Source of the DNA: Coriolopsis trogii
Lineage: Eukaryota > Basidiomycota > Agaricomycetes > Polyporales > Polyporaceae
DNA: 64,000 nucleotides
NCBI GenBank assembly: GCA_020543525.1
Contig: JAHYIO010000031.1
Span: forward strand, 3,348,001 to 3,412,000
Direction of reading: 5' to 3'
Position 1 is the first letter of the stretch. The number at the start of each line of letters is the position of its first letter. The translations under genes and the position numbers were made by a program. Of this stretch, positions 8,456-54,657 are shown one piece after another. Below the pieces are notes generated by a model. It saw only the letters and a list, made by a program, of their open reading frames with translations. It was not told the origin of the DNA and made no database searches.

Positions 8456-11400
8456 CTAGCTCCGTGACGCCGTCAATGATGCGAGGAGCTCCTTCACCAG
8501 TCCTTCGAGCGATTCAAGGCGAGTCACGATGTCGCCTGATTTTGCTTCTATCTGTGCCATACGGTCCTCGAGCGACGGTTTCGTCTCCTCCGAGTTTGCT
8601 TCGACAGGTGCTTGTTCAACGGGAACGAGCGTAACGAAGAGCCACCAGTGGCGCTGGTCCACAAGGGACAGGTCGGGCGCGCCCCGCTCGCACAGCCAGG
8701 GTTGCTCCCGCTGAACGCGACTGTTGCATTTAAAGCAAAGGACTCCTTCTCCCGGTTCTGCAAGTGAAGTCCGTCAGGGAGGGCATGGAGTAGGGACAGG
8801 GGAAGATGGTGATAGAACACTCGCCTCCGACGGTGAGACTGAAGTAAGGCGGATCAATGACCTTTGACCCGCAAATGATGCAGGGCAGTCCGCCGTCCCT
8901 CCGTTTCATCTCCTCTAAAGTAGCGGAAAGATGTAGTTTGGCGTCCGAGAGGATCCGGTGAAGGTATGACCTCCACAGTGGCCATCGTAACTGAAGGAGA
9001 TGATGGTCGGGAGTGTGTGTCTTGCCGGAGGCCGTGACAATGGTCTTGTTCGATGAGGAGCATGTCCAGCAGAGATCCACCGTATCGTCTATGGTGTCTT
9101 CTGTACATTCGATGCACAAAAAGCGCGTTGACATTGCCGACTTATTGACTCCGCAACCATCGCAATACACCCTGCCAGTGGAGATGTGCCCATTAGCCAT
9201 CTGCCAATCTCTCAACATGGCTCATTGAACCAACCAGTGGTAGACGGTTCGTCGGTCTGTGAACGCCCATATTGCCCGCCAGAGACGGAGATCATCCGGG
9301 TGTATTCCCCTGATCACACGCACCCAGTCAACCGCGTCCTCATAACGTTGGAAGTAGCCGTTGTCGGATTGTACTAGCGACAATTTGATGTAGCTCTTGC
9401 GTTGCTCTCGCCTTTGCTGGAGTCTCTTCTTTGTCAAGGTCCTCGAGCGAACCGTGCAGAGGGTGGCGTCAATGGCGAGTTTCCACAGCGCTCGAACACG
9501 GGTCTCCTTGAACAATTCGCGGGATGGGCATATGTACTGGACGGAACGCCGTATCATCAGGAACGTGCCAATTATGGGGGTGTCTGTTGAAGAAAAGTTA
9601 ACACGATTCTCGTTCACGTGTCAAATCAACAATCGTCGGACCTTCGTTGTTACCTTGCGCATCATCTTCAATCATGGGAGCCGGAGTGTTCGTCACGTCA
9701 CTCGCGGGAGCTTCTGTGGGCGGCTGTCCGTCCGCAACCTGTTCTCTCTCGCGCTCTTCGACAGGCGAGCTCCTACACATCGGCGTGGTCAGTGATGGTA
9801 CGTAGGTCATATCATCGAGTGAACTCACGAAACTTCGGTGGCGGAGGGTACACGTCGATACCAATTTCCTTGATCACGACCACACTGACCTCTAATCTCG
9901 CTCGCCTCTGGCGTGATATGCTTCGCATGCCAGACAACATAGGCTTCCAGCTCTACGCTGTATATAGTCATCGTGAATTCGCCGCCGTCGCAGGTCCCTC
10001 GAACCGATATACAACCCAGCGCGTTGTCGCCAAAGCCGCAAAACGACCCGTCGGCATCATGAGTTGTGATTGTGAAAGGGAGGAGGTATCCGTTTCCGTC
10101 ATAGGTGTATGATGCAGTCCAATGGCCTATGAGAGAAAGAACGGCTGATGCGTCGATGGAAGCGAGGCCCATGCTCGTAGAGGAATAAGCAAAGTGATCT
10201 ATCTCCTCCGTCTGAGGTCCATAGTAAAGTGGTTGAATGTACGGTGCCGTGGTGCCTTCCTCGATACTGCTGGCAGTGGCACCTTCGTCCGTGCTTGTAG
10301 AGGAAACTCCGACAACTGATGGGAAAAGAGTGTCCCCGACCATGCTGTAATCGGTTCCCGGAGAGCGTATCCAGTTTGCGTTCTTCTCCGGAGATGCGTA
10401 GATGTATGACAGCTGGCGGCCACGCATGGAATAGGCATCAGCGGACGGCGTAAGATTCTGGGGCGTAGGCAACAGACATACCAGCCCATGGAAATACTTG
10501 CCCAGCTGCTCCCTCTCATCCAGATTCTGGAGTTTGTACACGGCTGCGATGCAGATCAGTGTCTCGCAAAGTAATACAGGACTGCTGCGGCCTACCTTGT
10601 AAGGTGCGAACATGGTACAAGAGAACATTCTGGACAACGCCCAGAGATAGCTCTATGACTTCGAGTTCACGCTCGTGCAACGTGACCGACTTCGCTTGTT
10701 GGCAGATATACAGACTTCTCCGCATGAGGAGAAATATGAGTGGGAGGAGATAGTTACGTGGGGACTACCAGAGAACATGTCAGCTCGACGCAACTGACCC
10801 GTAGGACCAAAAATGCGTACCTTCTCTATTCTCCGCAAACCAGCCACAATGGCGAGTGTGTTTTCGTCATCGATGTTGTACGCGACTGAGCGGAGGTTGC
10901 GCTCCATACGCTCCTCGCACTCTAGGATGTAGTCTTTAAACTTGGCGAAAGAGGCATCGGTGTCGAAAGCTGTGCTATCCCAATCACTCACATCCCGTAG
11001 GCCGGATAGGAGATTTTCCACAAACATTACTTCCTCAGACTTCACGAAGCGAGAGAGAGCCTTGCGATTCGCAGGGAGAGAGGCATACATTGAGAGAGCG
11101 ATGTCTGAGATGACCGCCCGGATGCGCCGGAAATACCACTGGGCAGCCATCTCATGCCCTGTTATCATGTTAGTGCGTATATACCGCGATCCAGTCAAGC
11201 TATATACCGTATGTCCAATATGCTATCCAGCGAGGGAGGCTGAGATCGCGTCAGAGGATGAGTCGGAATCTCGTTGGGATACGCCAAATCTCACCTCCAG
11301 TCATGTGGCCGGGCAGCCGTGAACGTATTGACTTCCTCGATGGTGACGAAGGAGGACCCGTCGTCATCAATTGCCTCTATAAGAGGCTGGACACGCGAGA

Positions 11401-13074
11401 GGGTGATAAACTGAAGAGCCCACTCGTCCTCGTGCGCGAGTTCGGAAATCTGCTTGATGGCCTGTTCCGTCGACGTGTTGTCATCTCTATCTGCATCTTT
11501 GGCAATATCGCGGATCGTTGCAAGCGCTGCCTGACTCCGTTCTGCGAAATGATCGCGGATGGCCAGTACGAGGCGACTGGCTTTCACGTGTCCTTTCCAA
11601 CCCTGGTACTTGTCAACATTGCGGCTCGAGCACACAGAGAATGGCATACGGACCATTTCCTTCCAAATGTGGTACATATCCTGTGAGCAAAAGATCCCGT
11701 GTTCAGACCACCCGACTGTGACTATGAGGCGAAAGATTCCTCTCACCTTGTCGCGGATGCGTGCATGCGGGCCTGCGAGGATGTTCTCGATGACACGGTC
11801 AGACTCGCGAGTGATCGTCCGATTCACTTCGTGTATCTGCTCCATCATGGCATTGAGCTTCTGATCGAAAACCTTGTTCTCGTCCAAGATCTGCTGGACG
11901 CCTTTTTCGAGCTCCTTCCGGAGTTCTGCCACCGTCAGGGTGAGCGGCGCATCGCCCCGCGCCCCTCTTTTACCAGCCTTCTCGTCCTTGTTGTCGCCAG
12001 CTTTCCGTCTCTCCAGGATGCGCTCGAGTAGCTTATCGTCGTTCTGTGCGGCCTCGATCTCCTTCTGCGCGGCCTCCATATCACTGGCCTGAGGGGCAAC
12101 CATCTCCATAATCTCGCGTTCCTGAGGAGGGCGCATGCGCTCAAACACAACCCTCATGAACGTCCCCATGTCGTCCTTCATTTGTTTCATGGTCGCGTTC
12201 ATGGTGGAAAGCGTGAGGTTCGTGGTGAGCAAGCTGACGCTGGCATGCATCTGGAGGTCGAATTGGATGGCCGCCTTGTGGTCTGCGAACTCTTGCGCGA
12301 CCTCTGCGAACTTCTCTTGCCATTTGAGGCTCATGAAGAACTTGACTGTTCCGGAGAATTGAGCGTGTGATAGACCGAGGGCGAAGATGGGAACGCACCG
12401 GCGGCGTGACGCTTTGTGTAGCTGTCGCAGAGCCTCGCGCAACGCTTGATGGTCTCGATGACATCGCCGAGCCGGTCCCGCAGTCGAACTTCGATAGATA
12501 TGCCGTCCGAGCCTTGAGGGTTCGTGAGGTCTTTCAAACTGACCATGGATGTCAGGCGCCGTATCGGATTGGACACAGGAGGCCAGAGACCCACATAGTA
12601 AGTATGCTCATCATGTCGCACATGGTGACATTGAGGGCGAGAACCCTGTCATCGTTCTCGCGCCTCGTCAGCTCGAGTTGTATGCCGGCTTTAAAGAGAG
12701 CAACCGCCGCTGCATGGACGTCAATGAGCGTCATATCTCATGCACATGTGTTGAGGACAGCACGTTTGATGAAAGGATGGATTTCCCCAACCACGTCTAA
12801 AATGGACGTAAGGGTCTTGCTCGTTGTGGCGAAGTGATTGACTTGATTCTTCACGATAGTGTACACCTCGGAAGCATATGGACTGTCCGTCACGGTAACA
12901 ATGGCGTTCTCTGATGATTCAATGAGATGTAGCAGACATGGGCGTTGATGGACGAGCATGGTGCATACCGACGGAGCGCAGTCGTCTGGCGGCCCCAACA
13001 GGCTGGTATGCTTGGCTGGCCTTGATGGCAGCGTCCGCCTCCTTGAGAGCGTTCTCGGAGAATTCAGTAGGCAT
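8456..13074 (-). CDS. Paralogue A: helical bundle - coiled coil - EF-hand - calycin-like - ZZ finger protein
   Basis: Sixteen exons can be chained in frame (13074-12969, 12910-12764, 12709-12595, 12538-12399, 12345-11747, 11680-11654, 11602-11295, 11239-11208, 11158-10821, 10764-10596, 10543-10482, 10412-9829, 9772-9642, 9583-9235, 9171-8825, 8757-8456). They give 3,756 nt, or 1,251 residues. The protein starts MPTEFSENALKEADAA. It then has a helical bundle (HPFIK, then LFKAGIQLELTRREND), a coiled coil (residues about 215-370), an EF-hand loop DDDGSSFVTIEE (about 457-468), a helical core (WYFRRIR, LPLIFLLM), a beta-rich domain from GHWTASYTYDG, a ZZ finger (YCDGCGVNK, CIECTEDT, CWTC, HTPDHH), a second Cys pair module and a C-terminal coiled coil. 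The last intron needs a GC-AG donor (GAG/GCGAGT at 8824), and the Cys after PPYF is Ser here. Function is unknown. Paralogues are B, C and D. Confidence 0.85.
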
Positions 13075-13137: not shown

Positions 13138-13168
13138 TCTCGCATGCAAGCGTTTCCGGACAGGTTTT

Positions 13169-13250
13169 GCAAATGACCACAAGCTATGTGGAAGTCACGA
13201 GAAGCTGTTCACAATCGATATCGTGGATAAGCGCCAATCCGGAGCGCTGG
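13169..13250 (-). promoter_or_regulatory. Conserved upstream block of paralogue A, shared with B
   Basis: Read on the minus strand, this block aligns closely with 16790-16880 upstream of paralogue B. Shared words include GCGCTCCG, TCCACGATAT, GATTGTGAACAG, TTCTCG and AGCTTGTGGTCATTTG. Weaker similarity runs roughly 50 bp further upstream in both. The duplication therefore carried the promoter, and the two genes may respond to the same regulators. Confidence 0.7.
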
Positions 13251-14349
13251 GGGTAGAAGCAGAGCACCAACCCACGCTGCAATAGCCTTCGTGAGTAGGT
13301 GGTCGACTGAACAAAAGGCGGACTTTGCCGTGTGAGAAGAATGGTAGAGTGTATTCTATAAAGTATACCGGCACAAGCAAGGAATATATCGATGGGTTGG
13401 GCTTGCAAGGATCTTGGCGAGTCGATACGCGAGATGGCCTGGAGTGCGTGTTCTAGGGGGCGGTGCTGTCGCCTACGGGAGATCAAGTCAAGGTTCAAAC
13501 CACACAAACCACAAAAGACGCGTCCTAGACGCTAGTCGAAGGAAGGACGTACCGGAGGAGAGTCACCAGATGACAATAAGCGGGCAGATTGAAGTACGGT
13601 GCTGCATTCCGTTGGCAGTGCAGGGACTGCAGACGGGACACTCCGAGATCGCGCGAAGACTCTGCCTTTCAACGGGAACAGCACCACCATGGGGTCTGCA
13701 GGAGAAGGCTCACTCGTGTTCTGTAACACCTCTTCAGTAGGCTCGCAGACGTTGCTATGAACGAAACTGGGCCGTCGCACCTGAGTCATAACGGACACAA
13801 GGACCGATTGTGGACTGTGCGTATAAGCATATAGTATGAGCGTAGAAAGTGATTGAGCAGCCAGATATCCTATGCGGCAAAGATCGAGCCCATCGTATCA
13901 CGCAACAGAATGGACACTGGTATCATCCGGCGACATTCAATTATAACACATTGCGGTCTCTCTTCAGTGGTCTTGATCAGTCGAAGCCATCGAGGAGAGT
14001 ATTCGACTCACGAGTTCTGAGCAGATACCCGTCTCTGATTGAAAATGTCCTCCGCCACGCGTACCACTCAGGATCCTCCTATGCTGCGACACAAGACCAA
14101 GTCGTCGGGTGCGAGCGATGACTAGGTAGAGGCTCCGTCTTCAGGAGAGCTGAGTACTGTGCAGACGCCCGTGGGTCTCACGTAAGCGACGAGGGCTGGT
14201 GTGGCACGGCACTGACACTTACCACTCATCCATCGCCCTCCATCTCGTGCAAAGTAAAGACCCCATCAGCCCACTCCAGACTCTCGTTCACCGTTCTCCT
14301 CAGCCCAAACCACACCACATCTACTGAAAGTTCGTATAGTCACCCGCGA
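13251..14349. other. Divergent intergenic region between paralogue A and the small membrane protein gene
   Basis: No supported gene. Short ORFs (for example 13414-13740 and 13849-14121 on +) show no coding signature or splice logic. The right end must carry the promoter of the gene starting at 14350. Confidence 0.5.
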
Positions 14350-16974: not shown

Positions 16975-19900
16975 ATGCCTGCCGAATTCTCCGAGAAAGC
17001 CATTGAGGAGGCTGATGCTGCCATCAAGGCCAGTCAATCATATCAGCCCTCTAGAGCAGCCAGAAGATTGCGCTCCATCGGTGCGTACCTTGCCAGCTTA
17101 CTCGTGTTGACTACTTCTCATGAGTCATTGGACGCTCAGAGAATGCTGTCGGCACCGTGGCGGACAGTCCGTATGCCTCCGAGGTGTACACCGTGGTGAA
17201 AGATCAAGTCGATAACTTTGCCAAAACGAGCAAGAACCTCATGGCTATTATGGACGCGGTTGCCGACGTCCATCCGTTCATTCACGGTACTGTACCCAAC
17301 GCCAAGTGTCCATGCCTGTCTGTCTGTTGCTCACATTCGTGCAGTCGCGGTGTCGCTCTTCAAAGCCGGCATTCAACTGGAGTTGACTCGACGTGAGAAC
17401 GATGATAGGGTTCTCGCCCTCAAAGTCACCATGTGTGATTTGATGAGTACGCTCAAAGAGTGTGTCTCCGGAAAGCTGCAGTAAAACTCATCTTGCGTCT
17501 GACTTGTACGGTCAGCTTGAAACAGATCACAAGTCCTCGAGACAAAATCTCGATCGAAGATCGTCTGCGCGCCCGGCTAGGCGCTGTCATTGAATCTATC
17601 AAGCTCTGTGCGAAGCTTTGCGATACCTACCAAAAGCGGCACACGGTCGGTATGTCGTGTGGGTGTTGCAAGATGAGCCGTTACTCATCAGCTCCTCCAG
17701 TCAAGTACTTCACGAGCTCCAAGTGGCAAGAAAAGTTTGCAGAAGTCGCCCAGCAATTTGTGGATCACAAGGCGGAGATCCAGTCGGTGCTCACGCAGTT
17801 CATCAGCATCCGCATGGACCGACTCGTGGATAATGTGGAGAAGCTCATGGAGTTCGTCTTTGAGCGAATGCGCTCTCCGGAGGAACGTAAGATCAAGGCG
17901 CGGGTCGAGTCGTCGCACCCGGACGGGATGGAGGCAGCACAAAAGGATAAGAAATTCCTCGAGCAGCTCCTGCAGACGCCTCAGAGAAGTAATGACCAGA
18001 AGAAGGGCAAGAATCGAGAACAAGGAGACGTATCTCTCACGGTAGCGGAGCTTCAGCAAGAGGTCAACAAAGACGTCAACCAGGTCATTCAGGAAAACAA
18101 GTACTTCGACCGCAAATTTGAAGCAATGATGCGCCAAATGGACGACATCAAGATGACGATCAAACGTGAGTCAGATCGTACCATCAGCCAGATTCTCGCA
18201 GGTCCGCACTGTGAGCGTATCCACGACAAGGTACGGCAACTACTTTCCTATAGATTATCACACACACGGTGACCACTCCACCAGGATATGTCTCAAATTT
18301 GGAAGGAAATGGTACGTACATACAGCCTGTAGCTCGAGGCGCTGAAATGACAGGCTGCAGGGCTGGAGAGGTCATGTGAAAGCGGACAAGTTTGTGATGG
18401 CTCTTCGTGACTACTTCAACGTCGACGTAGAGAGGAACTACGACCTCGATGGACGGAGCCACGCGATCGCCACGAATCCCCATGTCTTTGAAGAGGCAGA
18501 TCTTGGAGACCCCACGTCCACACAACAAACTGAGAAGCCGCCGACAGACATCGAGAGGCGCGTCGCCCCGGAAGACGAGTGGGCTCTCCCGTATATCACA
18601 CTCTCCCGCATCCAGCCCCTCATCGAGGCCATCGATGACGATGGTTCCTCATTTGTTACCATCAAAGAGGTCAACAAGTTCACGTCGGCGAAGCCGCCTG
18701 ATTGGAGGTGAGATCGTCACATTTACCAAACTGTGCAAGGCTGACTCTCAGTAGCCTCCTTTGCTGGATAGCATACTGGACGTATGGTATGTACCTCCCT
18801 TGAGCAATACTGGGGTTATATGGTAATCTAAAGCCGTTCTTACAGGTTATGAGATGGCTTTGCAATGGTACTTCCGCCGCATCCGGAGCGCCATCAGTGA
18901 GATCGACGAAGCATCATATGCCGTTCTCCCTGCAAACCGCAACCTTATCTCTCGGTTCACTTGGGATTGGCCCGTGAGGTTTGTGGAGAATCTTCTTTCC
19001 GGGCTCCAAGGTATCAACCAATGGGATGGCATCGAGTTCGACACGGACGCAAATTTTGCGAAGTTCAAAGACCATGTTGTGAAATGCGAAGAGAGCATTG
19101 AGCGCAACCTTCGCTCAGTCAATTACTGCATCGACGATGAAAATACGCTTGCAATTGTCGTAGGCATGAATACACTCGATCAGGTAAGTGGACGAAACAG
19201 CACTCCCTATTCGCACAAATTGCCTGAGATGTCCGCAGTCTCCTCGCCAGTATCTACTCCCTCTCATATTTCTGCTCATGCGAAGGACTCTGTACATTGT
19301 CCGACAAGCGAAGGACCTCACGCTGCACGAGGGGGAGCTCGGGGTTATCCAGTTTTCTCTGGCAAATATTTACCGCGTCGTATGGGACCGTGTCCGCACG
19401 TTGCAAGGTGATCACTGCCGTTCGTGGTCGTACTATGGCAAGCCCTTGACCCAATACCATATTTTCCAGCCGTGTACAGGATTCAGAATCTGAACGTCAG
19501 GGAGCAGCTGGACAAATCGTTCCACGGGCTGGTGCGTACTAACTTCTGCCCCGGATACCTCTGCCGGCCCGCTGATTTTGAGTTAATGCATCCAAGTTCT
19601 CATATGCCCTCGGGGATCCAGAGGTTAATGACTACTGGAAGCGCAGTCCTTATGATGATAATGCAATCATCGGAGCCACTCTGCCGACGGAGTCGGAAGT
19701 TGAAGCTGCCACTAGCGACACCAGTGAGCAGGGCATACCGCACCCCGACATGCTCTCACTCTACTACCGACCTCAAACGGAGGAGATCGACCAGTTCACG
19801 AATCTCTCCCTGACGAGAAGCGCTGACTCTGTCGACCATCCAGCCACATTCCTTCTCATTGGACACTGGAGTGCGTCATACTCGTACCACTCACATGAGG

Positions 19901-21565
19901 GTGTCTTACATTTCACTATCACTTCTCACGACGGGGACGGGTCCATCCGTGGCTGTGGGGAGGACACACTGGGGACTGTCTGGGTCCGCGGGACATGCGA
20001 TGGAGGGCGATTGACGTTGACGCTTTACAGCAAAGAGATGCAATCCTATGCTGGCAGTCCGGATGCGATTGTCTGGCACACAAAAGACTTCTCACCGGAG
20101 GCGAGCGAGATCGGCGGGCACTGCGGCCTTGATCAAGGTAACTGGTATCAAGATGTCCTCACCGGGACCGATGGCGTCGCAGGGGACGGCTTTCAGTGAG
20201 TTCTCGAACATTCTCAACATGGCCTGCATACAACCCAGCACTGACCATGTATGAGTAGACACTCGCCTATTGAAGAGCGCGAGCAAGAGTACACTGCAGA
20301 AGCAACGCGCACAGATCCCGGGATGCCAGCAGTGAGCGGTGTAGAGGACAGTGGCAACGAAGATGCGCCTCCAGGGAACGGTGAAGGTAATACAAGATTA
20401 CAGTGTCGGGCGCACACGCGCACATTGCTCTGAGGTTGCTGACTCGTCTAATTCACAGACACTATCGTGCTCGGCACGTTCCTCATGATACGGCGTTCTG
20501 TCGAATACATGGTCTCTTGCCCACGCCGCGAGTCGCTCAAGGAGAACCGTACCCGAGCGCTGTGGAAACTCGCCATTGACGCGACTCTCTACGCGGTCCG
20601 CTCGAGGACTCTCACGTGGAAGAGACTCTACGAAAGACGACAGCGACGCACGCGCTACATCGAGTTGTTGGGAGCACAATCCGAAAGCGGCTTCTTCCAA
20701 TACCAGGACGACGAGTTGGACTGGGTGCGCGTGATCAGAGGCATTCACCCGGACGATCTCCGTCTCTGGCGAGCAATAGGGGCATTCAAAGCACGACGAA
20801 TGGTTGAACACTGGTCCGTCACTTGAACGCGTAAACGGCCTGGTAGCTAGCTAACCGCATCTTCAGGGTGGTTTGCGACGTCTGCGGAGTCGGCAAGGCG
20901 GGAATGTCAACACATTTCCGATGCATCGAATGCTCAGAAGATACGATAGACCAAACGGCAGACTTCTGCTGGGCATGCTCCTCGTCCAAGAAGTCCGTCA
21001 TCACGGCTTCAGGCAAGACGCATCTGCCCAGCCACCATCTCATCCAATTGCGCTGGCCACTGTGGAGGGTGTTTCTCCATCACATCTTCACTGACGCCAA
21101 GTCTCGCGTATCTGCCCGTCAGGAGGATATGCGATGCAGCGGCGGATTGCCATGCATGATCTGCACACAGATCATCACCTCCCCACCCTACCTCTGTCGC
21201 ATCGGTGAGCACCTTCCTCTCGAGCTGCAGCCATGTCCTCCTTGACGAAGCCGATCCGACCACCAGACACTGCCGACTCCGGGATCATCTGCTGTGCATG
21301 CAACGTTCGTCTTCAGCGGGAACAGCCTTGGATGTACGAGCGAGGCGCGCCTGATTTGCGGAAGCCCCAGTTTTGGTGGGACTACCTCGTGCTCGTCCCC
21401 GGCGAGCAGGCTCCTGTCGACTCTTCCGTTGACGAGGCGAGGCCAGTGCTCGAGGACCGTCTATCACAACTTGAGGCTAAACTCGAGTCGCAAACCGCCC
21501 GCCTCGCATCCCTGGAAGGACTCGTGAGGGAGTTGCTTGCGTCACGCAACACGGGCGGTCAGTAG
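16975..21565 (+). CDS. Paralogue B: helical bundle - coiled coil - EF-hand - calycin-like - ZZ finger protein
   Basis: Exons 16975-17080, 17140-17286, 17345-17459, 17516-17649, 17701-18230, 18285-18311, 18361-18707, 18755-18786, 18846-19183, 19239-19407, 19470-19531, 19597-20195, 20259-20386, 20459-20813, 20867-21204 and 21267-21565 sum to 3,726 nt, an intact frame of 1,241 residues. The helical bundle covers about 1-220 (HPFIHVAVSLFKAG). A coiled coil follows, then the EF-hand loop DDDGSSFVTIKE at 445-456. The helical core starts ALQWYFRRIR. The beta domain begins LLIGHWSASYS within 670-868. A basic helix lies at about 912-1029. The ZZ finger ligands are C1033, C1036, C1049, C1052, C1064, C1067, H1082 and H1086. 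A second CxxC pair and a coiled coil (LEDRLSQLEAKLE) close the protein. This is the cleanest copy and all its introns are GT-AG. The role is unknown; a calcium-responsive scaffold in recognition or stress is inference. Confidence 0.87.
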
Positions 21566-27532: not shown

Positions 27533-29800
<2,268 letters not shown>

Positions 29801-33080: not shown

Positions 33081-33113
<33 letters not shown>

Positions 33114-39825: not shown

Positions 39826-40770
39826 ATGTCCTCCGCTGTACAAGATGATGAAGAGTCTAAGGATTTCAATACGTTGCTACTTGGTGAACCCGTCGACCTC
39901 GTCGAGAAGAGCAAGGCCTTGTTGGACGTGCTGATCGTCGTATCCAAGCATCATCCTTTCGTCCAACGTAACATCTGTAGTCTTCACTGTGACGATAAGT
40001 AGTGACTGACTGGTATTGCACTGTACAGCGGCCGTAATGGCCTTTCGAGTTAGCATGATGTTGCACTTGGCAGGAATAAGGCGCGACCGTTTAGCCGACG
40101 CCCTCCATGTTGCCATGTGCGACATGATGGAGGCCCTGACGTTGTGCGTGTCCATCCGCATTGCTCCATTGGCGTGTCAGCTGATTTTTGTGCCAGATTG
40201 GAACACATCCCTCCGGTTGTTGATGCACCCTCAATTCTAGACCGTATTCGCCCGCGTATTGAACCAATTAGTTGTACGATAAGAGATTGCGCCAATGCTT
40301 GCAACATCTATCGGAAACGACATGCAGTCGGTATGTCAAGGGCCCTAGAGCATAATTTCTTCAGACACTTACTCCTAGCGTCAGTCAGAATCCTCACGAA
40401 GAACGCATGGCAGACGAGGTTCCATGATATCTTCGCAGCATTCGCGTACCATCGAAGATGCATCCTACTTGATCTCAAAGACTACACTGAGATCAATGTA
40501 CAGCTTGTCCAGGTCACGGTGGAGGACATCAACAAACGAATTGACAACATTCTATCTCTTTGGAACCCTCTGCCGAGTAGTATGTCCGATGGGGCCATGG
40601 CCATCGAGAACGCAGTGGGTCGCGACGGCGGCATAGTCGAGACTCTCAAAGACGAAGACGCTTTGCGGGCTTTGATGTTTTTTGATCAAAAGCTTGACGC
40701 CATGAGCATGCAGATGAAGGAGAGGAAGGGCAGGAGTACACCTAATCCACAGCCACTCAATGTCGCTGAG
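39826..40770 (+). CDS. Truncated paralogue module (helical bundle only), in frame with paralogue C
   Basis: Exons 39826-39967, 40029-40143, 40197-40330 and 40385-40770 sum to 777 nt, or 259 codons. Exons two and three (115 and 134 nt) have exactly the lengths of their counterparts in B. The text follows the family bundle (KHHPFVQ, AVMAFRVSMMLHLAGIRRD, CDMMEALTL, CANACNIYRKRHAV, WQTRFHDIFAAFAYHR). The usual first exon is missing and the coiled-coil exon is cut short. After 40770 a GTGAGA donor and an acceptor at 40822 would join it in phase 0 to 12 codons leading straight into the ATG of paralogue C (40859). The fused protein would have about 1,501 residues. Without splicing, the frame stops at 40804-40806. 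Only 88 bp separate this module from C's ATG, leaving little room for a promoter. Confidence 0.65.
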
Positions 40771-40858: not shown

Positions 40859-43800
40859 ATGACGGCCGATCCGGAAAAGAGCTTGGAAGACGCCGCTGCT
40901 GCGATCAGCGTCCCCAAGCCATATCAACCGTCCAAGGCAGACCAACGAGTGGGTCGTGTCGGTGCGTTTACTTCTTATCTACACTTCGCAATGGTTCGCT
41001 TCATGCACACTCTAGTGGATGGTCTCACTCCATACCAGGCTGCAGCACAGAGTGAAGTCACATCCGAGGCCCTTGCGTTGATCAAAGAAGAAGTCAGCAA
41101 GTTTGCCGAGCGAAGTCAGACTCTCATGTCCGCCCTGGATGTAGTCGCACAGACTCATCCTTTCATCCGAGGTAGTATCTGAAGTATCTGCTTGTGCGAG
41201 CGAAATTGAGTGATTGTTGTCCATTTCAGTGGCCGTGTCTCTCTTCAAAGCTTGCCTCGAGTTGGAGTTGACGAGACGGAAGAATGACCTCAGAGTCATC
41301 ACTCTCAATGATACTATGTGTGACATGATGGAACAGTTGACGTTGTACGTTCTGATCGTGTACGCTCACTTGGCATGCCCGTTGATTCTAACATACAGCC
41401 TGGAATACATCGCGGACCCTCAGAAGGCGGCCGAGCCCAATGGCTACTCGATCGAATACCGCCTACTTCAGCGTCTGGATTCGATCTGCAACACCATCAA
41501 GCGCTGTGCCAAACTCTGCGACACTTATCATAAGCAACGCACTGCTGGTACGTATGCTTTTCAAGTTCATTTCCTCGTTTTCACTACCTCGGTACTCATG
41601 CAAAATCTCAGTCAAGCTCTTCAAGAGCTTCAGTTGGCAAGCTGAATTCACGGAAGTGGCAGATCAGTTCGTGAACCACAACAACGGGATCCAGAGCGAT
41701 CTTCACTGGCATACGAGTATTGAACTGAAGCATGTCAAAGCGAAACTCGACCAGCTCGGCAAAGAATCAAAAGACACCAACGAAATGATGGCCATGGTAT
41801 TCCAGCGTGTCCAGTCCTCAGAGGAACATAAAGTCCTGGCCTTCGTGTCCTCGCAACCGGGTGGCCTTGATGCGGTGACGAAGGACGACAACTTACTCCA
41901 GCAGCTGCTTGCGACACTAGCCGACCGCTCGTCTGACGTCATCCTCACGGTTTCAGAGCTTCGGCAAGAGCTGGGGAAGAACATTCAGCAGTTCATCGAG
42001 GAAAACAAGGGATTTCAGCAGAAGCTCGAGGGTACCCTGAAGGTCATGGATGGTAAACTGGATGATATCAATGTTTCGATCACACGAGCGGCGCAAAATA
42101 TCATGGACGCGGTTGGCAAGGGTGCACATGACAGCGTCGAGAATGAAGTGAGTCCTCTTACTCACTCCGACGTCCGTCATCTCGTTGCTCATGCATATCA
42201 CCTTCGGCATTGGTAGAGCATACGAGAAATCTGGAAGGGCATGGTATGTTCCGTACTATGCATGTCCTGGGCGTACCCAGATTAACATCTCTACCGGTCC
42301 AAGGGTGCAAAAGGAAGTGTCAAACCGGTTGATTTCGCGAATGCCGTTCGCGAATATTTCACTGAGCACCGAAGCTTGACCGTGGACGACATTGACATCA
42401 GTTGGGCTTTGGAATCCATTCGAGATAGCCGTCGCTTGCAGCCACTTATTGAGGCACTCGACGAGAACCTTTCCTATTCTATCACTGTCGAAGAAGCCAA
42501 TGCGTTCACCACATTGCGGCCGGACGGTTGGAGGTGAGCATGCATGCGCTGCGTCACATACAAGGCACCGATTCATCTGCTTATGCTGTGGTAGTCTTCT
42601 CCGTTGGCTATCATACTGGATGTGTGGTACGTCTGACTCACCATTGCTCCGTAACATATCATGCGCTGTTCCAGTATCATTGACCGAGTAGTACTGTTTC
42701 TCTTCACAGGATTTGAGACGATTGTGCAGTGGTACTTCCGTCGGATCTGCAAGGTCATCTCCGAAGTCGTCTCAATAACGGCGGATACCCTTCCCTCAAA
42801 TCGGCGCATCATCTCTAGGTTCACGTTATCCCTTCCAGTACAGCGTGTGGAGATGCTTCTATCGCGACTTCGGGGCATCAGTAATTGGGATCATGTGCAT
42901 TTCGACACCGACCCGACATTTCTGAAGTTCAAAGACTATGTCGTGGAGAGTGAAGGTCGCATGGAACGCAAACTGCTTTCGTACAACTACTGTATCGACG
43001 ATGCAAATACGCTTGGTATGGTTGCCGATACAGGTAGAATTGAGAAGGTGACGTCACTGTTCTTCGAGTCGTTCCTCGTTATGCCTTGCGCCTGACTGTG
43101 TACACCCAAGTCCCTATTGCCCCTTATCTTCTTGCTCATGGCAAGAGCTCTAGGAATCATCCAGCAAGCCCGCTCAGTCGTGTTACATGAGAATGAACTG
43201 CAATGCATCTCAGATTCTCTGCAGACGATCATGTTGGCTGTCACGGATCGTGCTGAAAACTTGCATAGTATAGTAATCCACTCGTCCTAGCCATGTAGCA
43301 GGTCTCACCAATTTTTTCTAGCTATGTGCCAACTGCACAATTTGAATGAGAAGGACCAATTCAGCATGTACTTCTTTGGACTTGTAAGCTGAATTTGCCT
43401 TATCTCGCTGAGGCACATGTCCGATCCGCTGATCAAATCCACTCTAAGCTCTCGTCGACAACAGGAGATACTCGCAACTACTGGAAGACTATCCTTGACT
43501 ATGACCTTCAGGCTGGGAACACTGACGGACGTGTTCTCTTCACATATTCTCATGAGTCCTACGTCAAACCAGCTCAACTCCTCTACGGACCTCAAGAGGA
43601 CGAGGACCTCACAACTCAGAAGAATTTGGCTCCGTATATGTTCTTAGGCAACTGGAATGCCCTGTGGTCCACCCCTAATTGTCGACATGGAGGTGTCGTG
43701 AACTTCACAATCTCAAGGCAGGACAGGGATGGGTCCTGCTACGGCTACGGAACTGATACAAACGGCGACATTGTCTGTGTACGCATGAGCTATGAGAGCC

Positions 43801-45481
43801 AGGGCGACGAAGTGATGCTTTCGTTCACTCATGACGACACCCGACTTCGTGAGAAATCATCGCGCGAGATTCCCAAGTTGTGGCTCGCCGGCGGAGACAA
43901 TGGAGGCAGGATCAGCACAGACGAGATACACGGCTATATTCCCGTTTCCTCTGACATGGATATGTCCCAATCCGAAGTCGACGCAGATCATGGTGTGGAG
44001 GATGAAGCTAGGTGAGTTTGCATATTTCATGGCTACATCGTCTACTGACTATGTCTCTGTCCCAAGTCATCCGTACACTGGTAATCCCGGTGAGGGGTAT
44101 CCCGTTCCAGACACACATCTTGTCAGTGGCATGAATGATGAAGATATTGCACGTACTACTGTCTCGCGCTCCGAGCAAGATGAGCCCAACTTGAACGAGT
44201 CCGAAGGTACGCTGTTGCCTGGCAGACTGAGGATTAGACATGGGAGCGAGCTGATCATGTCCTCCTCAGGCGCTATCCTCATGCAAGGCAGTTTCCAAAT
44301 GACCCGTGGCCACATCAAGCCGTCAATATTGGCCTTAGCCAGCAAGGTGTTCCAGGAGAAGGGCTATCTTTCGTTATGGAAGCTGTTAGTATGCGAGGCG
44401 GTACGACCTGGGACTTTCCCGATGCAGAGGCTTTGGGCAAGGCGACAACAGCGGTTAAGGTACAACGAGCTATTGGAACTGGAGCGCAACGACGGCACTT
44501 TCCAGTTTCAGCGCGCACGCGTCAAGAGGGAGTGGGTAGACCTCATCCGGGGCATTCAGCCATCCGATCTCCAACTTTGGCGTGCAGCCCACGCTGTCCA
44601 GTCCCGTCGAGTGATTGTTCATGAAGGGTCAGTCTGTTCGATTGCATTGCATCTTAGGTTGGCGGCTGACATATATTCATACAGAGTGCGTTGCAAGGGT
44701 TGCGGAATGAGCCCCGTCAAATCGGCGCGTTTCATGTGCCTTGATTGTTGGGAAGACACCCGGGCCACCAACGTCCTTGACATATGCTGGGAGTGCTTCT
44801 CGTCAACCCGGATCCGTGACGGGAAACACACGCCAACCCATCGACTCATTCAGCTGCGAACTCCTTTGTTGTTTGCGTATCTCCAGTCGACCATCTCCTC
44901 CGCAAAATCCACGGTCTCTTCGGTTCAAGAGGAATTGATGAGGGCCGGGGACGTCGGACTGCCTTGCATGGTATGTCGGTTGAGGATTACTTCACCTTCG
45001 TACTTCTGCCGGATCATGGGGAGTGAGTTTCTTGCCGTTCAGTACACATGCACTACGAAATGCTAACATAACGTTTGAACTCCTGCCTATAGTAGAGGGC
45101 AAGCGAGTAGTCTGCCTCACTTGCAACAGTGAAATTGAGCGGACGCAACCGTGGCTGTATGAGCCAAAAGCGCACCAGAGCTCACCGGATAAGCATCACT
45201 GGTCCGACATACTGGTCTTCGTCTCCTCTGGTGCCGTGTCAAGAGTAGACTCGTCTCTCGAGGAACGTTTGACGCGCATGGAGGAAAGTATCGATGAATA
45301 TTATCGGGAGGTCAAGGATCAGCTGACGAAAGTTGAGACCACGCTAAAGGAGCAACAGGAGCAGATCATTGGGGTGCTGACGATGCAGGGGAACCTCGTG
45401 AAGGACTTACTCAGGCGCTTCACATTCGTCGTTCTCGCCTTACTTCTTGTTTCCGTTGGGATCTCTGCTTCATCATATTGA
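40859..45481 (+). CDS. Paralogue C: helical bundle - EF-hand-like - calycin-like - ZZ finger protein with C-terminal membrane segment
   Basis: Exons 40859-40961, 41016-41171, 41230-41344, 41399-41547, 41612-42147, 42217-42243, 42304-42533, 42595-42626, 42710-43047, 43111-43267, 43322-43383, 43449-44011, 44067-44206, 44270-44627, 44685-45022 and 45093-45481 total 3,693 nt (1,230 residues), an intact frame. Domain order is as in B. The EF-hand loop is degraded (DENLSYSITVEE, 415-426). The beta domain starts LGNWNALWSTPN. The ZZ finger reads CKGCGMSPVK, CLDCWED, CWECF and HTPTHR. The last exon is 90 nt longer than in B and adds a longer coiled coil plus a terminal hydrophobic stretch (FVVLALLLVSVG) preceded by LLRRF, with about eight residues after it. 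This is the pattern of a tail anchor. No other copy has it. Confidence 0.84.
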
Positions 45482-47848: not shown

Positions 47849-48915
47849 CCTTCGCAGAAGTGCAACGACATTGAAGTGAATTCGAGGGTGGCGCTGCACA
47901 GCATGCCCTCCCACCCGGGGGTTGTGGCGGAGGCAACGATGGTGCGTGCTTCTCTCCTCGTCTGGGGGACAGAACAGATGGCTGACTAGCGCGTACCTAC
48001 CGGTGTACTGACAGCTTCTATGACACTGATAGATATGAACTTGCTCTAAGTGAGATTGAAGCTGCGATGATCCCGCTGAGGTCTAACAAAGGGACCGGAG
48101 AGGTGGGAAGAAAAAAAGAGGAGAGGGATAGGATGGATGGAAAGGAGCGTCTGTATGACGCATATACTTGATGGATGGCGTCGGCCGTGCAATACCACGG
48201 TTGAGAGAGGACGTATATGCGTGCGTGGTCTGTAACAAACGGCATGCACGAGAACGAGTGTCGGCATAGCAGAAGACGACTCACGAGTTTGCAAGTCGCG
48301 CTATCCAGTTTAACACAAAGAGACAGGAAATGACTGCTGCTATCGGGTTGAAGTCGTAGATCCGTATGTACATGCACTATCCTGGGACAGATAGAGGAGG
48401 AACGAATGAGGAGGGAGACGGGGCGCGGGGGGATGGGCGCTTCCGAGACATAAGAGCGTGTCTTGAATCTACGCACTTGTCGAGATTACCGACAGTGCAG
48501 TATCGTGGTCTATCATATCAGAACGCAATAGAATTAAACATATGTATATAGAATATCAAAAGAAATCAGTCTAGATGGCGTCCGGGGGAATGGAGAGGAA
48601 GGGGAACTTGACATGAGACATGGGGACGGTGCTGCCAGTGGGAGGGCTTCGGAGGCGAAGCGTCTTCCAATTCGCTGCGCGCATGTCGCCTGATGTTCCA
48701 ATGCTTGATGGGGTGGTCTTAATATCGCATTGGACCTGCTTGTCCTCGTCGTCCGCGTCATCATGCACCTTCTGGTGATCGTACTGCGCTCGTACTCACT
48801 GCCAGTGGTCAACCGGCGGTCCTCAGGCCTCAGGCTCAGTCTGGCGATGGGCCGATGAAGGACTCCCGGGAACGTCGGACGGTGGTAGGAACGGACAGTA
48901 TGGACGTCCACATAA
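47849..48915. other. Intergenic region left of the inverted-repeat element
   Basis: I see nothing recognisable. ORFs on the minus strand (48018-48476, 48534-48938) are Ser/Pro/Arg-rich shadows without start context or splice logic. Confidence 0.5.
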
Positions 48916-49230
48916 TATGGTGCACGGCGCCTAGTCACCGCTTAAAATGGGCAGTGGCAAAATCGGCCAAACGACCAAATTAGGGCGCTTAGAGGGCGCT
49001 TACGGGGCGCCTAGGTCCAAGCGCCTCGGCTATTTGGCAGGAAGTGGCAAAATCAGAAGGGGATGCGCAAAATATCTCGCCCAATTTTGAGAATTGGGAC
49101 AAACGGCTTGACAGATCATCTCCCTTTGGGAAAAGGAGTCGATTGGTCAAGCCAATAAGGAAACGGGCAAAATCTCGGCACTCCCGTTTTGTTGTACAAG
49201 ATAAGCGGTGACTAGGTGCCGCGCACCATA
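48916..49230. mobile_element. 315-bp MITE-like element with 29-bp terminal inverted repeats and TA ends
   Basis: The left end (48916-48944) starts TATGGTGCACGGCGCC. The right end (49202-49230), read in reverse complement, starts TATGGTGCGCGGCACC. The 29-bp ends match at 27 positions. If the outer TA is the target duplication, the element is TA/TGGTGC...GCACCA/TA, as expected for the Tc1/mariner superfamily. The inside is non-coding and contains clustered GGCGC/GCGCC words (about 48984-49028). It lies between the unresolved stretch and paralogue D. No transposase is encoded, so it would be non-autonomous. Confidence 0.8.
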
Positions 49231-50079: not shown

Positions 50080-53000
50080 ATGACGACCAAGTTCTCAGAT
50101 AAGGCGCTCCAAGAGGCCGACGCTGCTATCAAGGCCAGTCAGGCCTACAAGACGTCCAGAATTGATCAACGACTAGGTTCTGTCGGTGCGTACTATGCTC
50201 CTCCATACCCCGATTCAAGCATAACATGATCCATGCTTCGCATGCCATTCAGAGGACACCATTTCGGGAGTCTACAACAGCCCATATACATCCATAGTGC
50301 AAAGTGATGTTGCGTCCGAGGGTTTTGCCTTGGTACAGAATCAGGTCAACAACTTTGTCAAGTCGAGCAAGATTCTAATGTCCGTGTTGGACGAGGTTGC
50401 GAAAGCGCATCCGTTCATCCAAGGTAATGTCCCTGAGGAATGGCGTTGCACATCGAAGTCTTGAAGTCACTGACCCCGATGGATTACCGCGACCGACTAC
50501 AGTCGCCGTATCTCTCTTCAAGGCCGGCATCACACTGGAGCTGACGAGGCGAGAGAACGACGGCAAGGTCCTCGCGCTCAATCTCACCATGTGCGACATG
50601 ATGCAGACACTCACGCTGTGGGTCTTCGTCATTCGTCCTCATGCAGAAACCTAGCCGACCACCAACGCTTTCAGCTTGAAACACATCGCGAGCCCTCAGG
50701 CTACGGGGTCCGGCGGCATCTCGATCGAAGAGCGTCTGCGCCAACGCCTGGGGTCCATCGTTGAATCCATCAAGAGCTGCGCCAAACTGTGCGACAGTTA
50801 TCAGAAGCGCCACATTGCCAGTACGTTCACGTTCCGAACGTTGACACGACCCCATCCCTGACGGGAGAAAAACAGTCAAGTTCTTCACGAGCCTGAAGTG
50901 GCAGGGAAAGTTCACGGAGGTGGCGCAGACGTTCGCGAACCACAAGGCGGGCATCCAGTTCGACCTCCAGATCCATGCCAGCGCCGGAGTGGCCGCCGCG
51001 AACCTCGCGCTCTCGGATATGAACGACGGCGTGAACGAGCTGAACGAGAACGTCACGAAGCTCATGGAGGCTGTCTTTGAGCGCATGCGCACCCCTGAGG
51101 AACGCGACCTCTTGACGGCCGTGTCGGCGCAGCCAGGTGGGTTCGAGGGGGTGCTCGAGGACGACAGGAGGCTGGAGGGCTCCTTGCGAGACGTAAGACG
51201 AAGGAGGACAACACTGGTGGGAAGCTCGATGTGGGTGGGTCCGGACAGGGCGAGGCGACACTGACGGTGATGGAGCTGCGGAAAGAGATCGACAAGAGTG
51301 TCGACCAGGTCCTCGCCGAGAACAGGTTGTTCGCGCAGAAGTTTGAGGCGATGAGGAGCCAGATCGACGAGGTCAAGGTCACCATCGTGCACGAGTCGGA
51401 TCGTGTCATCAACAGCATCCTCGCCGGACCCCATGAGCGCATCATCGACAAGGTACGACTTGTCCTCATCGCCGATGTTCGCGTTCTAAGTTTACACGTC
51501 AGGACGTGTATCACGTCTGGAAAGAGATGGTACGCAGACTGGCGTATTGTCAGAGGCACGTTGCTGATATGTTTCTAGGGATGGAAAGGGAGCGTGAAGG
51601 CTAAACACTTTGTGATGGCTCTCCGGGACCACTTTGCGGAGCGGAGCCATGCGGCACTTGCATCCATCCGAGACATCGCCGAGGATGCAGACAATCATGG
51701 GCCCGCCATGGCAGGACGTGCGATGCAAGAGATCGCCGACATTGCGCGGCACGCAGACGCGCAGGCCCCGGATGATGATGAATGGACTCTGCAGTACATC
51801 ACCGTGCTGCGTGTTCAGCCGCTCATCGAAGCCCTGGACGATGACGTCTCGTCGTTTGTGACTATCGCAGAGGTCAACGCGTTCACCTCTGCACGCCCGC
51901 ATCGGTGGAGGTGAGATCATTGTGTCATGATCCGTATCATGTTCCCAATTCCGATTGGTTGCAGCCTTCCTCACTGGATAGCATACTGGACGTATGGTAC
52001 GTACTGTAGCAGTCAAACGGCAGCTCAGTCGCACCCACGCTCCGTATCGCAGGGTTTGAGATGTCGGTTCAGTGGTATTTCCGTCGCATTCGCAAGGTCA
52101 TCTCCGAGTTCCTCTTAGCAACGAGAGCAGCACTCCCCGCGAACTACAATACGATCTCGAACTTTATCAAATCCGGACAGGTGCAAGGCGTCGAAGACAT
52201 TCTTTCGGGGCTGAGAGACATTGAGCAGTGGGACGACTTTCCGTGGGATACCGATGCGACGTTCCTCAAGTTCAAAGACTACGTCATGGAGGTCGAGGAG
52301 CGCATGGAACGGAAACTTCAGTCGATCAAGTACTGCATCGATGAAGCGAACACGCTGGTCATCGTCGCAGGACCCGGCAGACCTGAGAAGGTGCGTGCGC
52401 TCGTCCTCGCTCGCTTTCGTGCATCCGGACCGGGACTCACCTTGCTTCGCCAGAATCTACTGCCTCTCATCTTCTTGCTCATGCGACGAGGCTTGGACGT
52501 CGTCCGCCAAGCCCATTCGGTCACGTTGCACGAGGATGAGTTGCCAGCCATCCTGCAGTCTCTGGCGATCATATACCGCGCGCTGACGGACCGGCACCGT
52601 ACGTTGCAAGGTATCTCCTGGCGCTCGTTCAGCGATGTGCCCTGGGGCTGACGCTACTCTTAGCCGTGTACAAGCTTCAGAACCTGAACGAGAAGGACCA
52701 GTTCGAGAAGTATTTCCTTGGACTGGTGCGTCTCAGTTACTGTCCCTCGTTCGTTGCGCCATTGACGTGTTTGTCTCAAGTTTTCCTATGCCTTGGCGGT
52801 TGTTACAGAGAAAACCGAATACTGGGCACGCAACCCAGACTACGATGCAGATGCAATCGTCGAGGTCCCACCACTGAAAACGGGAGGGGAAGACACCGGC
52901 ATGTTTCCCCTTCTGCACGGCCCTCAGATCGAAGCGCTAGACCGGCTTACCGATCCGTCAGTTCTCAACTCGGACTCCGGACCCTCGGCGACCGGGTCTG

Positions 53001-54657
53001 TACGCTCTTTAGTAGGCCACTGGACCGGCTATTACTCGTCTCCGACTCGCCAGGGCGTTCTCGAGTTTACCATCTCTCAGGACGAGGATGGAGTGCTTTA
53101 CGGATACGGGGCGGACGCGTCGGGTCCTGTCCGGATATTCGCTCTCTGGGACGGCTGCCGGATGATCATGGTGCTCTATGGCGGCGAGATGCGGGAGGAG
53201 TCGAAGGAGGGCACCGATTCCGCGAGTATCTGGCGTGCGGACAATTTGACGTCGAGCGTGGACGAGATGGAAGGGCGCTACGGCCCTGCTGAGGGCAAGT
53301 GGTATACTGACGCCGCTCATGAATGCATCGACGGCTATGCTGAGAAGGAGATAAAGTGAGTCCGCGCTGACGCTATTCCCGCCCTGATTTTGACTGTTTG
53401 TAGTCACTTTGGGGCGGACGCCGCTGATGGTGAAGGAGGGCGTCCTCCAGAACAGTCGCACGAGGAACCAAGAGCGTCCAAAGGTAGAACGGGAGGAGTT
53501 GCCGTCCTCCTCGACATGCATCCTGACCACCTCTTGTACAGTGTCGAAGGCCAGTTTCGGAAGTTTCCACATGAAACGGCGTCCGGTGGAATACATGCTC
53601 TCTCGCCCCTCTGCCAGAACGCTCGCGCAGAGTCGCCCTCCAGCGCTGTGGACGCTTGCTACAGAAGCGACTCTGCGAGCGGTTCGAGCCCAGGCTTTCA
53701 CGTGGGAGGTGCTTCAGGAAAGGCGGCGGCGGCGGTTACATTTCATCCAACTGCTCAGATTGCAACGCGGCGACGGTCGGTTCGAGCAGACCGAAGACGA
53801 GCAGGAGTGGATTGAGCTCATCGGCACGATATCGCCGGACGACCTCCGACTGTGGTCCTGCTTGTCAGAATTCCAGACCCGACGGGAGTTCTATCACGGG
53901 TGAGCCGTCATGGCCATGACGTTTCTTGGTGACAACTTACCAGATCTACAGAGTGTATTGCAACGAATGTGCAAACTCGTCTGTGACGTCCACGCGCTTT
54001 CTGTGTCTTGATTGCTCCAAAGACACGATGGACTCCTTCGACCTCTGCTGGGACTGCTTCTCGTCTCAGAAACATATCGCGAGTCCGGGGAAGGCGCACA
54101 CTCCTAGTCATATCATCTTACAGCTGCGAGTGCCGAGGTGGAGGGTGTATATACACCCCTCCTTCATGGCCGCCAAGACTGTCGTCCAGTCTTTCAGAGA
54201 GGAGATAGGGTCTTCCCGGGATGGACTGCGATGCATCAGGTGCAAGACGTCCATAACGTGCCCTCCCTACTTCTGCTGCTACAACTGTACTCACGGTAGG
54301 CGTCATCCCCATCCTTTGGGTAGCCATCATCTCAGTTTCGCTGACGGTTCCTTCGGCGCGTGGTTCGTCCATGCCACAGCGAACGTCGTGGTCTGCTATG
54401 ATTGCAACAGTCGCGTCGAACGTGAACGACCGTGGCTATACGCGCGAACTCCGGTGGGCGACGAGCACAGCTGGGCGCATATGCTTGTCTCTGTTCCCGG
54501 CTGCTCTGAACCTGAAGAGACTTCTCATGAGCCTTCGCTTGAGAAGCGGGTAACACGGATGGATATTTACTATGTGTGGATGATCTCAACACAGGATCGA
54601 AACGGGTCGACTCGGATTGTGGTGATCGCTGAGGCTGAGTACGTGACGAAGCGCTGA
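50080..54657 (+). CDS. Paralogue D: same architecture, with a frame problem in the coiled-coil exon and an altered C-terminus
   Basis: The start is MTTKFSDKALQEADAA. First exons 50080-50185, 50253-50423, 50503-50617 and 50675-50820 follow the family. The coiled-coil exon starting at 50876 should run to 51452, but as read it is one base out of frame. Either a base is missing near 51177-51179 (a GGG run) or a 56-bp intron, 51193-51248 (GTAAGA...GACAG), is removed and restores the frame. Downstream text is normal: EF-hand-like loop DDDVSSFVTIAE, WYFRRIR, LVGHWTGYYSS, ZZ finger (YCNECANSS, CLDCSKDT, CWDC, HTPSH), and Cys module (CIRCKTS, CYDCNSR). The final exon (54380-54657) keeps LEKRVTRMD but then diverges and ends EAEYVTKR, without the long coiled coil of A-C. 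It may be functional, or a young pseudogene. Confidence 0.72.

What the first reader, a model, noticed from the sequence alone, without database searches (positions are those of the whole stretch)
8456..54657. Cluster of four-plus paralogues with an unusual domain chain: NLR-type helical bundle, EF-hand, calycin-like barrel, ZZ finger, no NTPase
Seen: A, B, C and D share 16-exon structure, splice phases and domain order over about 1,240 residues, and a fifth partial module sits before C. Known: helical bundles of this look occur at the N-termini of fungal STAND/NLR proteins, and ZZ fingers and EF-hands are standard modules. Inference: the combination without NACHT or NB-ARC, in a locus with inversion, truncation, fusion and frame decay, looks like a rapidly turning-over recognition or signalling family, possibly in allorecognition or immunity.
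Basis: partly seen in the sequence, partly recalled or inferred. Interest (0 to 1): 0.9.

Follow-up and report, generated by a model that had tools for sequence, protein, structure and literature searches.

The report
Calcium-sensor protein cluster borrowing VPS13 helices
A group of related mushroom-fungus genes near a chromosome end encodes large proteins that join a possible cell-death-type helical bundle, a calcium-binding site, a copied piece of the lipid-transport protein VPS13 and zinc fingers, which suggests an undescribed calcium-controlled protein family whose function remains to be tested.

Summary
The cluster is real. A-D are paralogues sharing exons and domain order; B gives 1,241 aa in 16 exons. 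A fifth full copy, E, lies just left of the window, and the genome holds at least 16 loci. A-D sit 21-67 kb from a telomere. Every listed relative with an organism shown is, to my knowledge, an Agaricomycete. An EF-hand loop is nearly invariant (152 of 157), and a ZZ finger is confirmed. The bundle resembles MLKL_N/PigL_N only below curated cut-offs. No NTPase was seen, and no profile supports the barrel. A-E form one clade, but five duplicate pairs give dN/dS 0.13-0.35 and the window copies are old, which argues against fast diversification. Best reading: a Ca2+/calmodulin-superfamily-gated, MLKL/HeLo-like membrane-acting family.

The parts
8456..13074 (-). Paralogue A (first exon 13074-12969, last 8720-8459 or 8742-8459, stop to 8456). 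EF loop DDDGSSFVTIEE at 11368-11333; VPS13-like helices about 9491-9381, with K where the family has the conserved W; ZZ1 9164-9000
16975..21565 (+). Paralogue B, 1,241 aa, 16 exons: 16975-17080, 17140-17286, 17345-17459, 17516-17649, 17701-18230, 18285-18311, 18361-18707, 18755-18786, 18846-19183, 19239-19407, 19470-19531, 19597-20195, 20259-20386, 20459-20813, 20867-21204, 21267-21562
17169..17903 (+). B: putative MLKL/HeLo-like helical bundle (aa 46-235; limits are my choice)
   Evidence: MLKL_N on B E 0.41 at aa 117-194; relatives up to 5.5e-5
18297..18417 (+). B: degenerate first EF-hand-like element (aa 349-372, across an intron), inferred
   Evidence: conservation
18634..18669 (+). B: canonical EF-hand loop DDDGSSFVTIKE (aa 445-456)
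19885..20262 (+). B: beta-rich region read as a barrel (aa 766-870); diverges strongly between copies; no significant profile match
20464..20808 (+). B: VPS13-like calmodulin-binding helices (aa 914-1028); W965 at 20617-20619
20874..21035 (+). B: ZZ finger 1 (aa 1033-1086)
21153..21301 (+). B: second ZZ-like finger (aa 1126-1154), middle Cys pair not intact in the model
39826..40770 (+). Partial, diverged bundle module before C; whether fused to C or separate is unresolved
40859..45481 (+). Paralogue C (most diverged; end by the model, another model ends later). EF loop DENLSYSITVEE 42460-42495; VPS13-like helices about 44371-44472, with M at the conserved W; ZZ1 44692-44844
50080..54657 (+). 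Paralogue D. EF loop DDDVSSFVTIAE 51837-51872; VPS13-like helices 53643-53753 with the W; ZZ1 53959-54111

Best explanation
The genes encode a family of large proteins that I propose act as Ca2+/calmodulin-superfamily-gated switches on an MLKL/HeLo-like N-terminal helical bundle. Shown by sequence: conserved modules in one order, of which the VPS13 calmodulin-binding helices, the canonical EF loop and the ZZ finger are identified, and the bundle, EF1-like element, beta-rich region, second ZZ-like finger and coiled-coil-like tail are readings. Inferred: (1) the EF hand binds Ca2+; (2) the VPS13-type helices are held either by calmodulin/Cdc31 in trans or by the protein's own EF-hand lobe in cis; (3) the ZZ finger reads an N-terminal peptide; (4) a Ca2+ rise, as after membrane damage or hyphal fusion, or the ZZ/barrel ligand, changes this docking and frees the bundle to act on membranes, giving local cell death or membrane repair.
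For: VPS13 homology: family profile to PDB 9yrm_B E 9.7e-15, 2.2e-15 and 2.3e-7, overlapping row sets; one member alone (P0022) E 4e-4; VPS13_N in 27 of 35 and 14 of 36 members at E <= 1 (10 members shared); the host's own VPS13 scores 62 bits with the segment's HMM and is 20-41% identical to 14 family rows over the segment. The matched piece is the helical segment between RBG1 and RBG2 that binds calmodulin in CtVps13 and VPS13C (PMC13430412, passages and section 10 part 1). A tryptophan that I equate with VPS13C W395 is W in 140 of 145 members with a residue there (12 gaps). All five EF ligands in 152 of 157; loose EF pattern in 151 of 157 against 144 of 3140 shuffles. ZZ1: seven ligands in 123 of 157; the two Asp equated with p62 D129 and D149 in 125 of 132 (PMC6197226 passages). 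Full eight-module order in 126 of 157. Bundle: MLKL_N in 12 of 36 and, of 15 first-subfamily members scanned singly, in 8 at E <= 0.5 in similar register. Precedent for an MLKL bundle plus a reader domain without NTPase: PaMt2 of het-V as described in PMC8229728 (passages).
Against: No bundle hit reaches its curated cut-off; 7 of 15 members scanned singly show no MLKL_N match, and in A4 it rings in 1 of 35. No PDB hit to MLKL, HET-S, RPW8 or any EF-hand protein at E <= 10. No structure could be predicted. Losses of EF ligands and of the W do not co-occur (5 and 5 of 157, overlap 0), so no support for cis docking, though numbers are too small to count. Window copies A and C have lost the W, and C and D the first ZZ Asp. 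The place of p62 D147, also needed there, is mostly T in the family (117 of 137 at B 1060; equated by spacing), which speaks against an Arg-degron reader of the p62 type. In VPS13C calmodulin was needed for correct folding and a Ca2+ rise alone did not move the protein, so the helices need not be a Ca2+ switch. I have no expression, toxicity or localisation data.
Confidence: 0.4

Rival explanations
1. Membrane-contact or trafficking adaptor: the protein uses VPS13-type helices to share or compete for calmodulin/Cdc31 with VPS13, and the bundle is a scaffold, not an executioner.
For: The VPS13 helices are the strongest homology to a solved protein; the duplicate pairs are under purifying selection; the genome keeps a separate VPS13.
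Against: No other VPS13 part was matched in the members shown; a subtelomeric, many-copy, lineage-specific expansion would be unusual for a housekeeping adaptor.
Confidence: 0.22
2. Allorecognition or immune receptor family, with the beta-rich region as the variable recognition part.
For: Subtelomeric place, cluster A-E one clade (SH-aLRT 98), recent duplicates elsewhere (dS 0.12-0.17), beta-rich region and linkers divergent among A-E (30% and 18% against 60-67% for bundle and EF2).
Against: dN/dS 0.05-0.58 in the 130-residue windows listed, except one at 0.89 in a fragment pair and one undefined; old window copies, no strain data; fast linkers are also expected without selection.
Confidence: 0.13
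3. N-degron or quality-control adaptor: tandem ZZ fingers read N-terminal peptides as in p62, PRT1 or KCMF1 and the rest oligomerises under Ca2+ control.
For: ZZ1 profile hits PRT1, HERC2, KCMF1 and p62 chains; two peptide-binding Asp are conserved in 125 of 132.
Against: The D147 place is mostly T; no PB1 among the families shown, and the one weak RING-type hit (E 0.3, P0014) overlaps the ZZ; 12 of 157 lack both fingers but keep the rest.
Confidence: 0.12
4. Integrated decoy: the VPS13 fragment is bait for foreign proteins that target VPS13 or calmodulin, fused to an MLKL-like executioner.
For: A fragment of a conserved host protein inside a multi-copy family with a possible bundle.
Against: The module is kept in 146 of 157 members (at least half occupied), mostly with the calmodulin-contact W, as expected for ordinary calmodulin binding; no foreign protein aimed at this site was sought.
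Confidence: 0.08

Closest known systems
VPS13 bridge-like lipid transfer proteins, calmodulin/Cdc31-binding helices between RBG1 and RBG2
   Same: About 70-105 aligned residues, 18-41% identity, the W in most members and an RRxxRxRYIEL-like motif
   Different: No chorein/RBG groove or C-terminal parts matched; only positions about 307-417 of the 1317-position VPS13_N profile match in the members shown. PMC7613979 (passages) reports another VPS13/ATG2 part, ATG_C, in fungal sterol glucosyltransferases: a precedent for a VPS13-family part found elsewhere
MLKL/HeLo/Goodbye-like bundles of fungal NLRs, including basidiomycete MLKL-likes (PMC9815663 passages)
   Same: N-terminal region with subthreshold MLKL_N and PigL_N matches
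   Different: No NACHT/NB-ARC seen; extra EF-hand, VPS13 and ZZ modules; the fold is not verified
PaMt2 of the Podospora het-V system (as described in PMC8229728 passages)
   Same: An MLKL-type bundle (here putative) with a reader domain and no NTPase
   Different: TUDOR reader there, ZZ and others here; no partner gene known here
ZZ-finger N-recognins (p62, PRT1, KCMF1, HERC2)
   Same: CxxC-CxxC-CxxC-HxxxH ZZ with two conserved Asp residues
   Different: Third p62 Asp (D147) not conserved; tandem ZZ at the end of a 1,200-residue protein, no PB1 seen
UniProt/NCBI entries auto-named 'Vacuolar protein sorting-associated protein 13 second N-terminal domain-containing', 'EF-hand domain-containing' or 'ZZ-type domain-containing protein'
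   Same: These are the family itself; the VPS13, EF-hand and ZZ similarities are already flagged automatically
   Different: The names seen give no interpretation: neither the calmodulin-site identity nor the bundle

Membership tests
MLKL/HeLo/Goodbye bundle superfamily | Profile match above curated cut-off | tested here: not met
   best MLKL_N 23.2 bits against 27 (P0022); PigL_N best seen 16 against 27.2
MLKL/HeLo/Goodbye bundle superfamily | Four-helix bundle fold | not tested
Fungal NLR/STAND | NACHT or NB-ARC NTPase | tested here: not met
   none on B at E <= 10; none among the 25 families shown of 40 and of 52; no conserved P-loop
VPS13 | Calmodulin/Cdc31-binding helices between RBG1 and RBG2 | tested here: met
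   (sequence homology only, binding not tested)
VPS13 | Chorein N-terminus and RBG lipid groove | tested here: not met
   VPS13_N matched only around positions 307-417 in the members shown
EF-hand | 12-residue Ca2+ loop with ligands at 1, 3, 5, 9, 12 | tested here: met
   152 of 157
EF-hand | Profile match above cut-off, paired hands | tested here: inconclusive
   EF-hand_STIM1 in 2 of 36, best 0.055; EF-hand_5 in 2 of 35, best 0.042; EF-hand_7 in 1 of 36 (0.14, P0024 residues 636-677, not at the loop); first hand degenerate
ZZ finger | Eight Cys/His ligands | tested here: met
   116 of 157 have eight (C or H accepted at 1064), 123 have seven; window models A-D keep all eight
ZZ finger | Profile above cut-off | tested here: inconclusive
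   P0001 28.0 bits over 21.4; window exons of D 20.0 and C 16.9, below it; no ZZ hit listed for B
Lipocalin/calycin | Profile or fold match | tested here: inconclusive
   no lipocalin profile among families shown; only chance-level PDB hits there (E 0.095 and 0.13); fold not tested
Allorecognition (het) genes | Allelic polymorphism between strains with an incompatibility effect | not testable with these tools
   one genome held, no strain data

The most novel reading that the evidence does not exclude
Mushroom-forming fungi captured the calmodulin-binding helices of VPS13 and built them, with their own EF-hand lobe and tandem ZZ fingers, into an NTPase-free family of Ca2+-gated MLKL-like effectors; the same helices may double as bait for agents that attack VPS13 or calmodulin. 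This would be a route by which membrane injury or cell fusion is turned into regulated death without an NLR.
Probability: 0.25. Interest if true: 0.85.

Novelty: new variant of a known kind. Interest (0 to 1): 0.6.

Why it matters
If right, it shows that the calmodulin-binding part of VPS13, where the W395C and A444P changes of two dementia patients lie (PMC13430412), is a portable module, and names a large, testable family of possible Ca2+-controlled death or membrane-response proteins in mushrooms, where somatic incompatibility is poorly understood (PMC8229728, start of abstract). Even if the effector reading fails, a VPS13-like module in 146 of 157 fetched fungal proteins is worth a functional test.

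Tried and rejected
STAND/NLR membership was rejected for lack of an NTPase. 'Vacuolar sorting protein' as a name was rejected, since only one VPS13 segment is matched. A VPS13 N-terminal lipid-transfer domain at the N-terminus was my first thought from the precomputed PF12624 labels; the match lies before the ZZ instead. Positive selection was looked for and not found. Whole-genome searches with MLKL_N and Goodbye rang nowhere, controls included, so they say nothing. No tRNA or Rfam RNA in the window (ARAGORN with the bacterial code). Searches of held papers for VPS13, HeLo, ZZ-type, EF-hand, NLR, MLKL, Mycena or mushroom terms in several mixes showed no paper on this family in the rows listed (one search lists 15 of 2,301); most subscription papers are not held, so absence from print is not shown.
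Full report
What is there. The window is C28:3348001-3412000 of an unnamed 38.8-Mb genome. With a small gene finder of my own I modelled the four genes. Exon-level protein comparisons run through B, A, D and C nearly from end to end, variable linkers excepted, and the inverted and direct DNA repeats agree. A lies on the minus strand and B, C and D on the plus strand. A partial bundle module sits before C at about 39826-40770. My models have 15, 16, 16 and 17 exons (A, B, C, D), so the shared 16-exon structure is likely but not proved for each copy.

Beyond the window. A fifth full copy, E, lies at C28:3341493-3346220, just left of the window. Searches with P0001 and P0040 show eleven more loci of a second subfamily on C1, C4, C20, C25, C28 and C39. 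One (C4:1985 kb) looks like a C-terminal fragment, and the model of the C28:259-kb locus lacks the beta-rich and VPS13-like parts. Total 16, a lower bound. Contig C28 has 3,423,758 bases and ends in 14 TTAGGG units in a row, so A-D lie 21-67 kb from a telomere. In an IQ-TREE quick tree of 28 first-subfamily rows (A-E and 23 relatives), A-E form one clade (SH-aLRT 98). An earlier FastTree of 61 rows agrees (0.989). C is a long branch.

The family. Three protein searches found 43, 40 and 290 relatives (the last lists 120 of 290 and was made with the bundle-to-helical part of P0039 only). 157 distinct proteins were fetched. All listed hits with an organism shown are Agaricomycetes as I know the taxonomy; three (P0073, P0142, P0146) show none, and 170 of the 290 were not displayed. 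In each search only about 8,000 candidates sharing most words were scored, so more distant groups may be missed. UniProt's automatic names already mention VPS13, EF-hand or ZZ.

The VPS13 segment. A profile of 44 members hits PDB chain 9yrm_B, named VPS13, over chain residues 341-447 with E 9.7e-15. Other row sets give 2.2e-15 and 2.3e-7; these sets overlap. Single protein P0022 gives 4e-4. I take 9yrm_B to be the Chaetomium protein of PMC13430412; the helix limits in that paper (CtH334-355, CtH360-382, CtH403-423) fit the chain if it carries a tag of about 27 residues, which I infer. In that work these helices bind calmodulin, and Cdc31 is predicted at the same place (passages; section 10 part 1). 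Mutants of the helices, W395C among them, lose calmodulin. The family W965 (B numbering) is W in 140 of 145 members with a residue there and absent in 12; I equate it with W395 by position, without having aligned VPS13C. The genome's own VPS13 is separate (C1:2725644-2728552), scores 62 bits with the family segment, and is 54% identical to the PDB chain there and 20-41% to 14 family rows. The six second-subfamily members compared give 32-41%, the eight first-subfamily rows 20-34%.

EF-hand, ZZ and bundle. The loop keeps all five ligands in 152 of 157; a loose EF pattern occurs in 151 of 157 proteins against 144 of 3140 shuffles. No EF-hand chain appears in the PDB searches at E <= 10, and Pfam EF-hand hits are few and weak. 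ZZ1 has seven ligands in 123 of 157, and PDB ZZ chains of PRT1, HERC2, ZZZ3, KCMF1 and p62 match in one or more. A second finger with six Cys is present in 127 of 157; its middle pair is out of place in the models of A-D, though another splice choice for D keeps it. The N-terminal region hits MLKL_N in 12 of 36 but 1 of 35 in A4 (10 rows shared), and PigL_N in 5 and 9; none seen passes its cut-off. PMC9815663 (passages) reports basidiomycete MLKL-likes just below thresholds, which makes this typical but not proof. The full order of eight modules is found in 126 of 157 (a module counted if half its columns are filled).

Evolution. NG86 dN/dS is 0.30 for L031/L034 (dS 0.17), 0.13 for L028/L033 (dS 0.70), 0.35 for L028 and fragment L038 (dS 0.12), 0.15 for D/E (dS 1.25) and 0.19 for A/B (dS 1.16). 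Stretches under 50% identity were masked (for D/E 442 of 1202 aligned residues were dropped, for A/B 313 of 1179), so fast parts are under-counted. Mean identity among A-E is 67% for the EF2 region, 60% for the bundle, 43% for the VPS13-like part, 30% for the beta-rich part and 18% for the acidic linker.

How it may work. Known: calmodulin holds these helices in VPS13, and a VPS13 fragment with them was insoluble without it. Inferred: a protein that carries them must be served by calmodulin or Cdc31, or by its own EF lobe, and this is the natural place for Ca2+ control of the N-terminal bundle. Against a simple switch, a Ca2+ rise alone did not move VPS13C. ZZ1 keeps the Asp residues equated with p62 D129 and D149, which bind the peptide amino group (passages; equated by motif spacing, p62 sequence recalled), but the D147 place is mostly T, and window copies C and D lack the first Asp; so an N-terminal peptide reader is possible, a p62-like Arg reader less so. 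The cis-docking idea gets no support from co-loss (overlap 0 of 5 and 5). Everything after the module list is inference, and no fold could be computed.

Judgement. The feature is real and larger than reported, the domain chain is confirmed in part and improved by the VPS13 finding, and the fast-turnover reading is weakened.

Noticed in passing
window 48916-49230: A MITE-like element of about 315 bp with 29-nt inverted ends (93% complementary) and ten nearly full-length copies at 95-100% identity elsewhere (nine on other contigs, one on C28): probably a recently active small transposon inside the cluster.
   Followed up: partly
window 13165-13254 and 16784-16881: Upstream of A and B a stretch of about 90 bp is kept in inverted orientation at 81%; shared promoter, 5' leader or an upstream exon.
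   Followed up: no
window 25268-26689 (+): The PF10712 'NAD-GH' hit on the plus strand lies antisense to an HSP70-family ORF on the minus strand (25259-26656), so the plus-strand frame is probably not a gene.
   Followed up: yes
window 55400-60000: Two tandem genes 71-76% alike in DNA over the repeated blocks that look like FAD-linked oxidases by my reading of the predicted protein; the one ORF scanned gave no Pfam match. An OYE-type oxidoreductase lies at 61242-62006 (PF00724).
   Followed up: partly
window 4728-8203: HAM1-like gene (PF19343 E 1e-16, PF14613 weak) next to the cluster.
   Followed up: no
L031 and L034 (C28:250 kb and 237 kb); L028 and L033 (C4 and C20): Second-subfamily duplicates 88% and 86% identical in the core; by dS only the first pair is recent (0.17 against 0.70). 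Four second-subfamily loci lie 78-263 kb from the left end of C28, where no telomere repeat was seen.
   Followed up: partly
window 46219-47982: Sequence with 67-80% similar stretches on C33, C36, C4, C6 and C27; ORF 46329-46997 has no Pfam match. Unidentified.
   Followed up: no
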